A stretch of DNA of 22,302 bases, from the IMG/VR virus record IMGVR_UViG_3300032242_002651, positions 1 through 22,302 of that record. One strand, 5' to 3'. This DNA is from a virus. The position numbers and the translations under genes are program-made. The notes beneath the pieces were generated by a model. The model was given only the letters and a program-made list of their open reading frames with translations. It had not been told where the DNA came from and did no database searches. Below, one piece after another: positions 6,696 through 13,506 of this stretch (position 1 is the stretch's first letter; the number at the start of each line of letters is the position of its first letter).

Positions 6696-6740
6696 TATAC
6701 CCCCCAAAGGATTTTTATCTTTTTGGGGGTATAATCTTTT
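6696..6740 (+). terminator. Rho-independent terminator
   Basis: A strong stem pairs TATACCCCC (from 6696) with GGGGGTATA (ending 6733), extended by AAA/TTT past a one-base bulge, and is followed by ATCTTTTAG. It lies 12 bp after the phosphoesterase stop and separates that gene from the first tRNA. The stem is nearly symmetric, so it could also act on the opposite strand. Confidence 0.75.
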
Positions 6741-6777
6741 AGAGATAGGACCCTTTATTGGCCTCTTATTTTTAACC

Positions 6778-7977: not shown

Positions 7978-8005
7978 TTGACAACTAGAGTACTTGTAGT
8001 AGGTT
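7978..8005 (+). promoter_or_regulatory. Possible promoter before the tRNA cluster
   Basis: TTGACA (7978-7983) is followed after 16 bp by TAGGTT (8000-8005), a weak -10. The -35 context GTTGACAAC and the spacer length match the better promoter at 11590. An imperfect inverted repeat (GAGTA...TACTC) overlaps it, and a 6-bp hairpin (CTAAAA/TTTTAG, 8015-8031) abuts the first tRNA and may direct 5' processing. Confidence 0.35.
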
Positions 8006-9716: not shown

Positions 9717-9953
9717 ATGATGATATCAAAACTTAAAACAGAAACAAGAGAGCATTACAGGATTAGAGATATCGAAGATGAGGAGTATACGTTTATCATA
9801 AGGTACGAAACAGGCCGTGAAATACGTAAAACCAAAGAGATATTGATAAATAGTAGCACAGGCAAAAAGATTAAACCTCTTAATGCTCCTCATAAGTTCT
9901 ACAAGATATCCGAGGCAGTAAAAAAATTCATAGACCAAGAACATGCCAACTAG
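9717..9953 (+). CDS. Hypothetical protein (78 aa)
   Basis: The product is basic and begins MMISKLKTETREHYRIRDIE; the second Met (9720) is an equally good start. It has a beta-like segment (EEYTFIIRYETGREIRKTKE) and a C-terminal helix (YKISEAVKKFIDQEHAN). No family is recognised. It lies 31 bp after tRNA-Lys behind an A-rich leader and overlaps the start of uvsE by 11 bp, so it is probably cotranscribed and coupled with it. Confidence 0.6.
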   Translation: MMISKLKTETREHYRIRDIEDEEYTFIIRYETGREIRKTKEILINSSTGKKIKPLNAPHKFYKISEAVKKFIDQEHAN

Positions 9954-10866
9954 ACTAGGCTATTGCTGCATCTCCCTAGGAGAACATAAATCAACCTTTA
10001 AGACTATAACCCTGACTCGTGGATTCGATTTAGGATTGGGATCAGAAGAGTTGAGGGATAAACTTCATGGTATTTGGAAACATAATTTAGAAGAATACCG
10101 TCGTGTATTAACATATAACCTATTATCTAATTTTGGACTATATAGGATTAGTAGTGCTTTATTCCCGCTAGCAGACCACATAAACTTCAAGTACTTATGG
10201 ACAGAATTCATAGGTGAAAAGTATGTAGACACTTGGTATGATAGCAGAAAAATAACAGAGCTATACCTTAGGTTTGGTAGGCTCTGTATGCATCCTGACC
10301 AATTTGTTAGCTTAGGAAGTCCTAGCGAAACAGTAAGGGAAAACTCTATTAATAACCTGGAATTTCACAATGAATTCCTTGAGCTAATAGGTGTGCCCTC
10401 TGGTTATGGTTGTCCCTTGAACATACATCTCAGCAGCGGCAAGGATAATATAAAAAACATGGAGTATTTCATTGGTAGTTTAAGTAAACTATCAAAAAAT
10501 ACCCATGGTAGGCTGGTGTTCGAAACAGAGGACAAAGGATTCTGGACATGGCAAAAGATTCTAGAACACTTTCCTGGTTATCCTATAACCTTGGATTTTC
10601 ACCATAGGAATATAAATAACGAAGGAGAGAGTGTTAAAGAAGCTATAGATAACTGTGTTAGTACATGGGGAACCTTTATACCTATGATGCATATTTCAGA
10701 GGGCAGGGATAAACCATTAGACAGAACGCACAGTGATTTTGTAGAAACACTGCCACCGGAACTATTAGATTACTGTAAAAAGCTGCCGGTTGATCTAGAG
10801 ATAGAAGCAAAGCAAAAAGACCTTGCAGTTTTAGAATTATGGAGTAAATATCATGGAGTAACTTAA
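9943..10866 (+). CDS. uvsE: UV damage endonuclease UvsE/UvdE
   Basis: The product has 307 residues, the normal full length of this TIM-barrel enzyme. UvdE nicks DNA immediately 5' of UV photoproducts, starting an alternative excision repair. Family landmarks appear in order: RLGYCC (4-9), YRISSALFP (67-75), CMHPDQF (115-121, H117), NIHLSSGKDN (160-169, H162), FETEDKG (193-199, E194), LDFHH (217-221), MMHISEG (H250), HSDFVETLP (H263), and DLEIEAKQKDLAVLEL (284-299). The His, Glu and Asp residues expected to bind the metal cluster are present, so it should be active. It follows a small coupled gene. It would let the phage repair its own genome under sunlight or in a damaged host. Confidence 0.95.
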   Translation: MPTRLGYCCISLGEHKSTFKTITLTRGFDLGLGSEELRDKLHGIWKHNLEEYRRVLTYNLLSNFGLYRISSALFPLADHINFKYLWTEFIGEKYVDTWYDSRKITELYLRFGRLCMHPDQFVSLGSPSETVRENSINNLEFHNEFLELIGVPSGYGCPLNIHLSSGKDNIKNMEYFIGSLSKLSKNTHGRLVFETEDKGFWTWQKILEHFPGYPITLDFHHRNINNEGESVKEAIDNCVSTWGTFIPMMHISEGRDKPLDRTHSDFVETLPPELLDYCKKLPVDLEIEAKQKDLAVLELWSKYHGVT

Positions 10867-10870
10867 TGAT

Positions 10871-11209
10871 ATGTACATACCAGCGCAAAACTTCTCTGAG
10901 CAACAAGATCTAGAGGTGTATTGCCCTATCTCAGGCGAGAGATATGTGTGGGTGGATGCTGATAATAGCAGTCAGCTTCCACCGCACCTCTCTCCTGGTG
11001 CAATAGAAAGATTACCTAACAGGTTCTTTCAAAACCCCTTGGTGAGCAGGCACGAGAATCAAATCAGGGTACATTTTGTACCCACAACACCCGAACCTAC
11101 CATGACTAAAAAAGATGACGACGAAGAATTGGTTATAGCTGCAAAAGCAGCAGGAGGATCAGTAGTCCCTGAGGCTATTAAAACCCCAGAACCAGAAAAA
11201 CATGACTAG
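10871..11209 (+). CDS. Hypothetical protein (112 aa)
   Basis: The N-terminal ~70 residues look like a small folded domain: MYIPAQNFSEQQDLEVYCPI, then SGERYVWVDADNSSQLPPHL and ENQIRVHFVPTTPE. The rest is acidic and probably disordered (TKKDDDEELVIAAKAAGGSV ... TPEPEKHD). The single Cys18 rules out a zinc ribbon. It starts 4 bp after uvsE and overlaps the next gene by 8 bp, so it belongs to the same transcript. An internal ATG at residue 78 could give a short acidic product, but nothing favours it. Family unknown. Confidence 0.6.
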   Translation: MYIPAQNFSEQQDLEVYCPISGERYVWVDADNSSQLPPHLSPGAIERLPNRFFQNPLVSRHENQIRVHFVPTTPEPTMTKKDDDEELVIAAKAAGGSVVPEAIKTPEPEKHD

Positions 11210-11456
11210 TATGGAAGTAGCCATAAACGATACAACATTCTGGAAAGTATGGAACACTCTGAGAGACACAGAGCGATTTCTAGCCAACTTGGATGTATCC
11301 GGCATGACTGAAGATGAGTCAGAAGACACAGAACAACTGCTAGCTGATGTTCGTTGGAGAATGAACAACCTAGCTCCACAAATGGAAATACTCAAAGAAA
11401 ATGAAAACAATTGTAAAGAAAGTCTCAACAGAACATATGTATATAGTGAAGATTGA
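11202..11456 (+). CDS. Helical hypothetical protein (84 aa)
   Basis: The product is acidic and helical: MTSMEVAINDTTFWKVWNTL, then a helical pair (EDTEQLLADVRWRMNNLAPQ) and a charged end. No family is recognised. The start overlaps the previous stop by 8 bp; Met4 is an alternative start that would leave no overlap. Its last 56 bp overlap the next gene in another frame, so the C-terminus may be under dual coding constraint if both genes are real. Confidence 0.6.
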   Translation: MTSMEVAINDTTFWKVWNTLRDTERFLANLDVSGMTEDESEDTEQLLADVRWRMNNLAPQMEILKENENNCKESLNRTYVYSED

Positions 11457-11604
11457 AGATTCTCCTATCTATCATTTATGGGTAAGAGAAAACCATCTCA
11501 CGGATATGCCTAGGTATCAGGTTGAGAACGCTGAAACCGGAAAACAGGTGGTGGATAGAGCTGAGTTTGATAGGGTTAAAAATAGTGTGTTGACAACATG
11601 CTAG
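11401..11604 (+). CDS. Small beta-rich hypothetical protein (67 aa)
   Basis: The product begins MKTIVKKVSTEHMYIVKIED and continues with SPIYHLWVRENHLTDMPRY and a basic C-terminal part (DRAEFDRVKNSVLTTC). It looks like a small beta-sheet domain; no family is recognised. Met13 (11437) is an alternative start that would shorten the overlap with the preceding gene. The promoter for the downstream RNA candidate overlaps its last codons (TTGACA at 11590-11595), so this gene ends the uvsE transcript region. Confidence 0.6.
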   Translation: MKTIVKKVSTEHMYIVKIEDSPIYHLWVRENHLTDMPRYQVENAETGKQVVDRAEFDRVKNSVLTTC

Positions 11605-11617
11605 ATTGGATTAGTAT
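11590..11617 (+). promoter_or_regulatory. Predicted sigma70 promoter of the structured RNA
   Basis: A consensus -35 TTGACA (11590-11595), a 16-bp spacer and a -10 TAGTAT (11612-11617). The expected start, about 7 bp downstream, falls at 11623-11625, exactly where the 15-bp terminal stem of the RNA begins. It is the best promoter match found in the window. Confidence 0.65.
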
Positions 11618-11622
11618 GAATT

Positions 11623-11797
11623 TCTCCTACAGTTGTAGCCGTTGCCGCCGCATACGGCGGAACGCGCTCTGACTGCGACGAATTTCCCTGAGAAGAGATT
11701 CTAGGGACAGCGAGTAATCGGGGCACAACAGTTAACGCAGGGAATCTCACCTTGTATCGCTGCTCTGTGATTCCCCCGTAGTTACAACTGTAGGAGA
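11623..11797 (+). ncRNA. Candidate structured RNA with pseudoknot (about 175 nt)
   Basis: The region has no convincing ORF and is much richer in G and C than its surroundings. Ends 11623-11637 and 11783-11797 form a perfect 15-bp helix. Inside are a 6-bp hairpin (CCGCCG/CGGCGG around CATA, 11645-11660, extended by GTT/AAC), a TCCCT/AGGGA hairpin (11685-11689 with 11703-11707), and a hairpin of GGGAAT plus CAC (11740-11750) with GTG plus ATTCCC (11767-11775), bulged by two bases. The last hairpin's loop holds TCGCTG (11757-11762), complementary to CAGCGA (11708-11713), a likely pseudoknot. The alternative pairings TTCCCTG/CAGGGAA and GAGATTC/GAATCTC compete and may allow switching. No T-run follows; the next ATG is 22 bp on, so it could also be a leader. 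No tRNA-like, tmRNA or known ribozyme core is recognised. Confidence 0.7.
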
Positions 11798-11818
11798 TTA
11801 ACCTTAACCCCTAAAAAA

Positions 11819-12130
11819 ATGTTTAACTTATTCCCCAACCTGCTAGCCTTCGATTCTATGAAAGAGTTTTTAAAAGATCAACAGTCTAACTTTAGCTGGA
11901 ACTATTATCCTCCTGCAAACAAAGAGGATGTGTTGAAAGGTGAAGAGCAACAACCACAACAGGAGAAGCTCACCAAAGCCCAGAAAGATATAAAACTCAA
12001 GCTCGCTGCTAGAGTAGCCCAAGGGGAGACTTATGCAGATATTGCCTTGGAGTTAGCAGAAGAGCTGGCAAAGAAAGATCGTAAAATCAAAACCCTAAAC
12101 AATAAAATCACAAACCTCAGATCAAATTAA
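11819..12130 (+). CDS. Coiled-coil hypothetical protein downstream of the structured RNA
   Basis: The product has 103 residues. The N-terminus MFNLFPNLLAFDSMKEFLKD leads to a Pro/Gln/Glu linker (GEEQQPQQEKLTKAQKD) and a long charged C-terminal helix (ELAEELAKKDRKIKTLNNKI) with coiled-coil heptads. No family is recognised. The ATG follows CTAAAAAAA, an A-rich leader without Shine-Dalgarno. It is the first gene after the RNA candidate and may share its promoter, in which case the RNA would be its 5' leader. Confidence 0.65.
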   Translation: MFNLFPNLLAFDSMKEFLKDQQSNFSWNYYPPANKEDVLKGEEQQPQQEKLTKAQKDIKLKLAARVAQGETYADIALELAEELAKKDRKIKTLNNKITNLRSN

Positions 12131-12136
12131 AAGATA

Positions 12137-12505
12137 ATGACATACCCACAGTTTGAAAGAGCGATCTTAAGATTGCAACACATACAGACCAAGTGTCAGA
12201 AGATAAGAGAAACGGGAATAGACATAATAGACTTCACAGATAACTTCTACTTTGTGATAGACACCCTATTAGAATCTATTTTTTCAGAAGCACAAGTTGA
12301 TCTAATCAACTGGTATCTTCTAGAGAGGGATCCTAAACTTGGGTTAATAGCAAAAGATAAAGAAGGTAATGAAATCTGCTATGATATACCTAGTCTTTGG
12401 AAAGAACTAGATAGCCTAGGGTGGAAAAATGAATGTGAAAAAATTATATCTAACACAAGAGATATAGAGTACTACAGAGAAATGGCAGAAAGAGGAGAAA
12501 TCTAA
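12137..12505 (+). CDS. Hypothetical protein (122 aa)
   Basis: The product is soluble and acidic: MTYPQFERAILRLQHIQTKC, then FYFVIDTLLESIFSEAQVDL and INWYLLERDPKLGLIAKDKE. It resembles, in style only, small phage proteins made of two helical hairpins; no family can be named. It starts 6 bp after the coiled-coil gene. The segment AGAGGAG just before its TAA could serve as a Shine-Dalgarno for the overlapping peptide gene that follows. Confidence 0.65.
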   Translation: MTYPQFERAILRLQHIQTKCQKIRETGIDIIDFTDNFYFVIDTLLESIFSEAQVDLINWYLLERDPKLGLIAKDKEGNEICYDIPSLWKELDSLGWKNECEKIISNTRDIEYYREMAERGEI

Positions 12506-12585
12506 TGACACCTGCGAAAAAAACAGCATTAATACTAGTAATCATATATTTGATTTTGGTAGTATATCATCTTCTAAAACAGTAA
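12505..12585 (+). CDS. Putative 26-residue membrane peptide
   Basis: The product starts MTPAKKTALILVIIYLILVV and ends YHLLKQ: one transmembrane helix with a basic start. The start overlaps the previous stop as TAATG, and an AGAGGAG sits 6-7 bp upstream of the ATG, one of the few good Shine-Dalgarno matches here. It is small but well placed. Confidence 0.5.
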   Translation: MTPAKKTALILVIIYLILVVYHLLKQ

Positions 12586-12589
12586 TAAC

Positions 12590-12679
12590 ATGCCCCAGAA
12601 CGAGGATAAGCTTAAATTTATAGTACTAGCTATTATAATAGCTTTCTTTTTAGCTGTTCTAAGCACATCCAAGTTTTAA
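12590..12679 (+). CDS. Putative 29-residue membrane peptide
   Basis: The product starts MPQNEDKLKFIVLAIIIAFF and ends LAVLSTSKF: a polar N-terminus then one transmembrane helix. It begins 4 bp after the preceding membrane peptide's stop, so two membrane peptides stand in tandem. The function is unknown. Confidence 0.45.
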   Translation: MPQNEDKLKFIVLAIIIAFFLAVLSTSKF

Positions 12680-12999: not shown

Positions 13000-13018
13000 T
13001 TAGTTATTTTGGTATAGT
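13000..13018 (+). promoter_or_regulatory. Extended -10 promoter element, copy 1
   Basis: TTAGTTAT (13000-13007) followed by TG-G-TATAGT (13010-13018), then ATTATGAAG. This is the same arrangement as at 13467-13487, including the shared tail GGTATAGTATTATGAAG. There is no good -35. The predicted start near 13025 leaves a leader of about 50 nt before the gene at 13074. Confidence 0.55.
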
Positions 13019-13073
13019 ATTATGAAGATAGGAATGTTTCCTTTTCTTCTTTTAACCCCTAACCAAAAGACAA

Positions 13074-13402: not shown

Positions 13403-13428
13403 AGGGGACTAACAATCCCCTTTTCTTT
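13403..13428 (+). terminator. Rho-independent terminator
   Basis: The stem AGGGGA/TCCCCT (13403-13408 with 13416-13421) has a 7-nt loop and is followed by TTTCTTT. It ends the 13074 gene. A second, imperfect C/G-rich hairpin (CTACCCC/GGGGTGTAG, about 13448-13466) lies just upstream of the next promoter and could back it up. Confidence 0.7.
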
Positions 13429-13466
13429 AGCTATTCTAACCCCTCCCCTACCCCCCTGGGGTGTAG

Positions 13467-13487
13467 TTAGCTATTAACTGGTATAGT
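13467..13487 (+). promoter_or_regulatory. Extended -10 promoter element, copy 2
   Basis: TTAGCTAT (13467-13474) then TG-G-TATAGT (13479-13487), continuing ATTATGAAG as in copy 1. The predicted start is near 13494, and it drives the 13507/13581 unit. No -35 hexamer is visible at 16-18 bp, so an extended -10 or a phage-specific factor is likely. Confidence 0.55.
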
Positions 13488-13506
13488 ATTATGAAGCGAG
13501 AGAATA

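What the first reader, a model, noticed from the sequence alone, without database searches (positions are those of the whole stretch)
11590..11819. Possible undescribed phage structured RNA with its own promoter
Seen: a GC-rich island without convincing ORF in AT-rich DNA; a perfect 15-bp end-to-end helix; two or three internal hairpins; a loop complementary to an upstream hexamer (TCGCTG/CAGCGA, pseudoknot); and competing pairings of the CAGGGAATCTC segment with two upstream segments. A TTGACA-N16-TAGTAT promoter predicts a start within two bases of the first helix nucleotide. Known phage RNAs of similar size with paired ends include the phi29 packaging RNA (174 nt), but I see no sequence match. 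It might be a regulatory RNA, packaging-type RNA, ribozyme, or switchable leader of the 11819 gene.
Basis: partly seen in the sequence, partly recalled or inferred. Interest (0 to 1): 0.8.

Follow-up and report, generated by a model that had tools for sequence, protein, structure and literature searches.

The report
New structured RNA gene in a phage
A large tailed bacterial virus carries an undescribed ~175-letter RNA gene that folds into a sealed, branched shape, is conserved in a related virus as strongly as transfer RNA genes, and seems to use the same kind of promoter as those genes; its task is still unknown.

Summary
Window 11623-11797 folds far better than chance (z = -6.7), begins where a TTGACA-N16-TAGTAT promoter would start transcription, has no credible ORF and matches no Rfam family. 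The two copies share a 61-pair structure with no broken pair and 10 double compensatory changes; 300 column shuffles never reach its energy or its compensatory count. Fourfold-degenerate sites of neighbouring genes are ~40% identical between the two phages, the RNA 80%, the tRNAs 76-93%. T(T/G)GACA-N16-TAGNNT occurs only twice in each genome: before this RNA and before the tRNA-Leu cluster. Best reading: a stable phage RNA gene made like a tRNA and probably acting in trans (about 55%). Main rival: a cis-acting leader of the operon that starts 22 nt downstream. The proposed pseudoknot is allowed but unproven; the proposed competing pairings of CAGGGAATCTC are not conserved. Only two homologs exist in everything I could search; expression and function are untested.

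The parts
11590..11617 (+). Sigma-70-like promoter TTGACA-N16-TAGTAT
   Evidence: Both hexamers identical in L009 (7999-8026) although about half of the 16 spacer bases differ; T[TG]GACA-N16-TAGNNT occurs only here and before the tRNA-Leu cluster, in both genomes
11623..11639 (+). P1, 5' strand of the end-to-end closing helix; predicted transcription start about 11623 (inferred from the promoter)
   Evidence: 17 pairs with 11781-11797; two double compensatory changes, three one-sided, none broken
11640..11664 (+). P2 hairpin, variable in sequence (11 of 25 identical) but kept as a helix
   Evidence: Three double compensatory changes
11665..11724 (+). Nearly invariant core (P3 and the junction towards P4)
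   Evidence: 55 of 60 positions identical
11666..11715 (+). P3 domain: P3a (CUCUGACUG/CAGCGAG) plus two mutually exclusive apical hairpins of equal energy
   Evidence: The two apical hairpins give -69.1 / -68.5 kcal/mol here and -60.0 / -59.8 in the homolog
11719..11778 (+). P4 domain with apical hairpin P4b (11737-11742 / 11750-11755) and conserved loop CUCA
   Evidence: Four double compensatory changes, two of them transversion pairs in P4b
11781..11797 (+). P1, 3' strand; end of the conserved RNA
   Evidence: Identity falls to about 55% between here and the 11819 start codon
11819..12130 (+). Downstream gene (103 aa, helical, no known family); only its N-terminus is well conserved
   Evidence: 36-38% identical to L009:8224-8541; no Pfam or PHROGs match; low-confidence helical model
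13403..13421 (+). First well-formed intrinsic terminator downstream, conserved in L009 at 10339-10356
7978..8005 (+). Promoter of the tRNA-Leu/Met/Glu cluster, TTGACA-N16-TAGGTT, same architecture as the promoter of this RNA
   Evidence: Same layout in L014 and L009 (T[TG]GACA-N16-TAGGTT) and nearly so in L023 (TAGGCT)

Best explanation
A genuine, undescribed phage gene for a structured RNA of about 175-180 nt. Shown by sequence: a conserved promoter, a four-way-junction fold closed end to end by a 17-bp helix, a variable scaffold that keeps its pairing through compensatory changes, and a nearly invariant core. Inferred: host RNA polymerase starts at the first base of P1; the RNA is made from a stable-RNA type promoter shared with the phage tRNA cluster; its 3' end is made by processing within a polycistronic transcript, as the interspersed phage tRNAs must be; P1 protects the ends; and the invariant core binds a host or phage macromolecule in trans. 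Which partner is unknown.
For: Fold z -6.7. Syntenic homolog with 61 shared pairs, 10 doubly changed, 0 broken. Consensus energy -72.1 against -31.0 +/- 3.9 and 10 compensatory pairs against 2.2 +/- 1.5 in 300 column shuffles. Plus strand -72 against minus strand -41. RNA 80% identical where fourfold sites are about 40% identical and tRNAs 76-93%. In G001 it is the most stably folding non-coding gap of 25. The same promoter architecture is found only before the tRNA cluster and this RNA. tRNA-Lys and tRNA-Glu of the window are likewise followed directly by ORFs without terminators.
Against: Only two homologs, so covariation rests on one pairwise comparison. There is no intrinsic terminator after the RNA and the next ORF begins 22 nt downstream, which also fits a leader. 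The promoter motif was defined after seeing the sites, and chance gives about 0.8 in 182 kb. Most relatives of this phage lack the RNA or are too fragmentary to show it. No expression data.
Confidence: 0.55

Rival explanations
1. A cis-acting 5' leader of the operon 11819 to about 13391: the nascent RNA controls elongation or expression downstream, for example a put-like RNA that makes RNA polymerase resist termination, or a switch using the two isoenergetic P3 hairpins.
For: Flush with its promoter, no terminator, the next ORF starts 22 nt (window) or about 16-18 nt (L009) after P1; RNA and 11819 homolog stay adjacent although the next genes on both sides differ; two P3 hairpins of equal energy in both copies; conserved operon terminator 13403-13421.
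Against: No terminator or antiterminator at its 3' end. None of the phage genes inspected has a Shine-Dalgarno site, so ribosome-site sequestration is not available. The 11819 protein is one of the fastest-changing neighbours (36-38%) while the RNA is 80% identical. It is larger and more branched than put RNA (about 70 nt, two stem-loops; PMC9378689).
Confidence: 0.27
2. A packaging-type RNA like the phi29 prohead RNA.
For: Similar length and paired ends; a weak possible loop-loop match (GAG/CUC) between the P3 and P4 hairpins.
Against: No match to any Rfam family, pRNA included. This is a large phage with 13 tRNAs in the homologous contig and a terminase large subunit of family phrog_675, whereas pRNA is described as unique to phi29 and related Bacillus phages (PMC11476376). 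The fold has four helices at the junction.
Confidence: 0.04
3. A self-cleaving or otherwise catalytic RNA.
For: Compact branched fold with a nearly invariant 60-nt core and a possible pseudoknot.
Confidence: 0.06
4. A DNA-level element (origin, protein-binding palindrome) or a chance fold with no RNA function.
For: A perfect inverted repeat can also form in DNA.
Against: G-U pairs tolerated on the plus strand only (consensus -72 against -41 on the minus strand); compensatory changes throughout; conserved promoter immediately upstream.
Confidence: 0.04

Closest known systems
GOLLD and ROOL RNAs
   Same: Phage or prophage encoded, structured, often near tRNA islands, function unknown (PMC12286853)
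   Different: Many GOLLD members exceed 800 nt with ornate pseudoknots; this is about 175 nt and matches neither Rfam model
T4 stable RNAs C and D (from my own knowledge, not tested)
   Same: Small stable non-tRNA RNAs of unknown function encoded with a phage tRNA cluster
   Different: Lie inside the T4 tRNA transcript; no similarity found in the phage collection
phi29 prohead RNA
   Same: Similar length (174 nt), paired 5' and 3' ends
   Different: Different branching, no sequence or model match, different kind of phage
HK022 put RNA
   Same: Structured RNA directly behind an early promoter in front of an operon
   Different: About 70 nt with two stem-loops; this one is sealed end to end and more than twice as long
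6S RNA
   Same: About 180 nt, long closing stem at the ends
   Different: Branched fold instead of one interrupted hairpin with a central bubble; no match to the 6S models

Membership tests
Any Rfam 15 family | Score above the curated threshold | tested here: not met
   Only tRNAs in the window; permissive scans of both copies give chance hits or nothing
phi29 pRNA | Match to the family model / sequence | tested here: not met
phi29 pRNA | Encoded by a small phi29-like phage with the p16 packaging ATPase | tested here: not met
   182-kb relative with terminase phrog_675
phi29 pRNA | Present on proheads and required for packaging | not testable with these tools
   needs the phage
GOLLD / ROOL | Match to the family model and large size | tested here: not met
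   about 175 nt
GOLLD / ROOL | Encoded by a phage near tRNA genes | tested here: met
   Six tRNAs 1.9-3.6 kb upstream; same layout in L009
T4 RNA C / RNA D type | Stable non-tRNA RNA produced with a phage tRNA cluster | tested here: inconclusive
   Shared promoter architecture with the tRNA cluster, but a separate transcription unit; no expression data; no similarity in 50,697 phage records
6S RNA | Single long hairpin with a central open bubble; match to 6S models | tested here: not met
   Four-way-junction consensus; no 6S hit
Retron ncRNA | Adjacent reverse transcriptase | tested here: not met
   No RVT_1 match in the 182-kb relative; no such neighbour in the window among those scanned
put-type antiterminator leader | Immediately downstream of a promoter, in front of an operon, no terminator in between | tested here: met
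put-type antiterminator leader | Two stem-loops of about 70 nt | tested here: not met
   The fold and size differ (put RNA features from PMC9378689)
put-type antiterminator leader | Binds RNA polymerase and suppresses termination in cis | not testable with these tools
   needs a transcription or reporter assay
Type III toxin-antitoxin RNA | Tandem repeats upstream of a toxin endoribonuclease gene | tested here: not met
   No repeat array in 11400-11950; 11819 protein has no family match

The most novel reading that the evidence does not exclude
A new class of phage trans-acting RNA: a small sealed four-way-junction RNA, produced like the phage tRNAs, whose bistable and nearly invariant core acts on the host transcription, translation or defence machinery.
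Probability: 0.35. Interest if true: 0.8.

Novelty: new variant of a known kind. Interest (0 to 1): 0.55.

Why it matters
Few phage-encoded structured RNAs are known and most of those (GOLLD, ROOL, T4 RNAs C and D) have no known job. A compact one, with a clear promoter, sealed ends and a sharply bounded invariant core, is small enough for in-vitro folding, pull-down and structure work, and its apparent co-regulation with tRNA genes gives a testable lead. It also shows that comparing two environmental phage contigs is enough to turn an unannotated gap into a credible RNA gene.

Tried and rejected
A scan for the 17-mer of the P1 arm gave 7 viral contigs, all chance. A looser two-block pattern gave one extra contig (L064), also chance. 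The structured windows seen downstream of UvdE in L018 and part of those in L019 are tRNAs; one in L019 ends in a strong terminator-like hairpin. L069, which shares two neighbours, has no equivalent of comparable stability. Covariance-model searches of about 115 related loci and 62 whole related contigs found only the one homolog; genome contigs, plasmids and named phages gave nothing. Filters-off hits in L018/L019/L010/L011 are bare palindromes matching only the P1 ends. Shine-Dalgarno sequestration by GGAGA of P1 was rejected because the phage genes inspected lack such sites and the spacing to ATG is too long. Bacteroidota-type promoter motifs were inconclusive. A structure model of the 11819 protein was too weak to use.

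Full report
What is there. The window is a 22.3-kb virus record from a large tailed phage; its closest long relative is the 182-kb contig IMGVR_UViG_3300006112_000008 (L009, whole contig G001), which shares the portal-like gene at 93% amino-acid identity and encodes a terminase, a family A-like DNA polymerase, a ribonucleotide reductase and 13 tRNAs. Between the gene ending at 11604 and the gene starting at 11819 lies a GC-rich stretch without a credible ORF. It folds at -86 kcal/mol, 6.7 standard deviations below shuffles, and no other stretch of 10861-12600 comes near it.

The homolog. BLASTN found one syntenic homolog, L009:8014-8235, E = 1e-39. The promoter hexamers TTGACA and TAGTAT are identical with a 16-nt spacer in both, although about half of the spacer bases differ. 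RNAalifold gives one structure with 61 pairs: P1 (17 pairs, end to end), P2, P3 and P4 around a four-way junction. None of the 61 pairs is broken in either copy, and 10 are changed on both sides and kept. With columns shuffled within their conservation class, the consensus energy averages -31.0 +/- 3.9 (observed -72.1) and compensatory pairs average 2.2 (observed 10, maximum 7 in 300 shuffles). The opposite strand gives only -41, which argues for an RNA read from the plus strand and against a DNA palindrome.

Selection. Fourfold-degenerate sites of the UvdE and portal genes are only 39-41% identical between the two phages (smaller genes give similar or lower values on few sites). The RNA is 80% identical, in the range of the tRNAs (76-93%). 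The change is concentrated in P2 (11 of 25 identical) and in the P4 hairpin, while 55 of 60 core positions (11665-11724) are identical. This is the pattern of a functional RNA with a variable scaffold and a constrained centre.

Fine structure. P4b is settled by two transversion compensations (A-U to U-A, G-C to C-G). This overrules the window-only minimum-energy hairpin of CAGGGAATCTC, several pairs of which are broken in the homolog. The P3 apex can form either GAAUUUC/GAGAUUC or UCCCUGAG/YUC-U-AGGGA, with equal energy in both copies; the first has one double change, the second only invariant or one-sided changes. The proposed pseudoknot CAGCGA/UYGCUG is pairable in both copies but competes with P3a and P4, where all bases are invariant too, so two sequences cannot decide it.

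Expression context. T[TG]GACA-N16-TAGNNT occurs exactly twice in the 182-kb relative and twice in the window: before this RNA and before the tRNA-Leu/Met/Glu cluster. The tRNA promoter keeps the same 16-nt spacing in L014 and L009, and TTGACA is about threefold depleted in the relative (36 against 109 in block shuffles). The pattern was chosen after looking at the sites and shuffles give 0.8 in 182 kb, so this is suggestive, not proof. The start would fall at the first base of P1. There is no terminator behind the RNA; the first well-formed conserved terminator is at 13403-13421, after the 13074 gene. The window's tRNA-Lys and tRNA-Glu are likewise followed directly by ORFs, so processing out of a longer transcript is plausible but not shown. 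None of the phage genes inspected shows a clear Shine-Dalgarno site, which removes the simplest translational-switch reading.

How it most likely works. I favour a stable, trans-acting phage RNA (about 55%), with a cis-acting leader of the 11819 operon as the main rival (about 27%). For the leader: adjacency to the 11819 gene survives replacement of the next genes on both sides. Against it: no expression platform, and the RNA is far more conserved than the protein it would control. Packaging RNA and ribozyme are minor options.

Known families. No Rfam family matches either copy, and no named phage, plasmid or searched bacterial genome carries it. GOLLD and ROOL share the setting, phage and tRNA islands (PMC12286853), not the size or model. 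phi29 pRNA shares length and paired ends, but is described as unique to phi29 and related Bacillus phages (PMC11476376). HK022 put RNA is about 70 nt with two stem-loops (PMC9378689). T4 RNAs C and D are, from my own knowledge, the nearest analogy in setting.

Limits. Two sequences, one comparison; IMG/VR scans by pattern and by protein neighbours found no third. Many relatives end before this locus. No transcript has been seen.

Noticed in passing
window 13454-13496 (and 13010-13027): ACCCCCCTGGGG followed by TGGTATAGTATTATGAAG; the 18-mer is identical at G001:162498(-), where the same C-rich block precedes it, and recurs at window 13010. Possibly a second promoter type of this phage.
   Followed up: partly
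window 615-21409: None of the 36 inspected ORF starts shows a clear, well-spaced Shine-Dalgarno site; leaders are mostly A-rich, suggesting a host group with SD-independent initiation.
   Followed up: partly
window 6698-6745: A strong conserved hairpin (CCCCCCAAAGG...TTTTTGGGGG) upstream of tRNA-Ile, followed by TATAATCTTTTAGA; kept in L009, L013 and L023.
   Followed up: no
window 9943-10866: UvdE-type UV damage endonuclease gene; only a minority of the portal-related contigs carry one near this region.
   Followed up: partly
window 11819-11835: The first 17 nt of the 11819 ORF are identical in L009 although the protein is only 36-38% identical.
   Followed up: no
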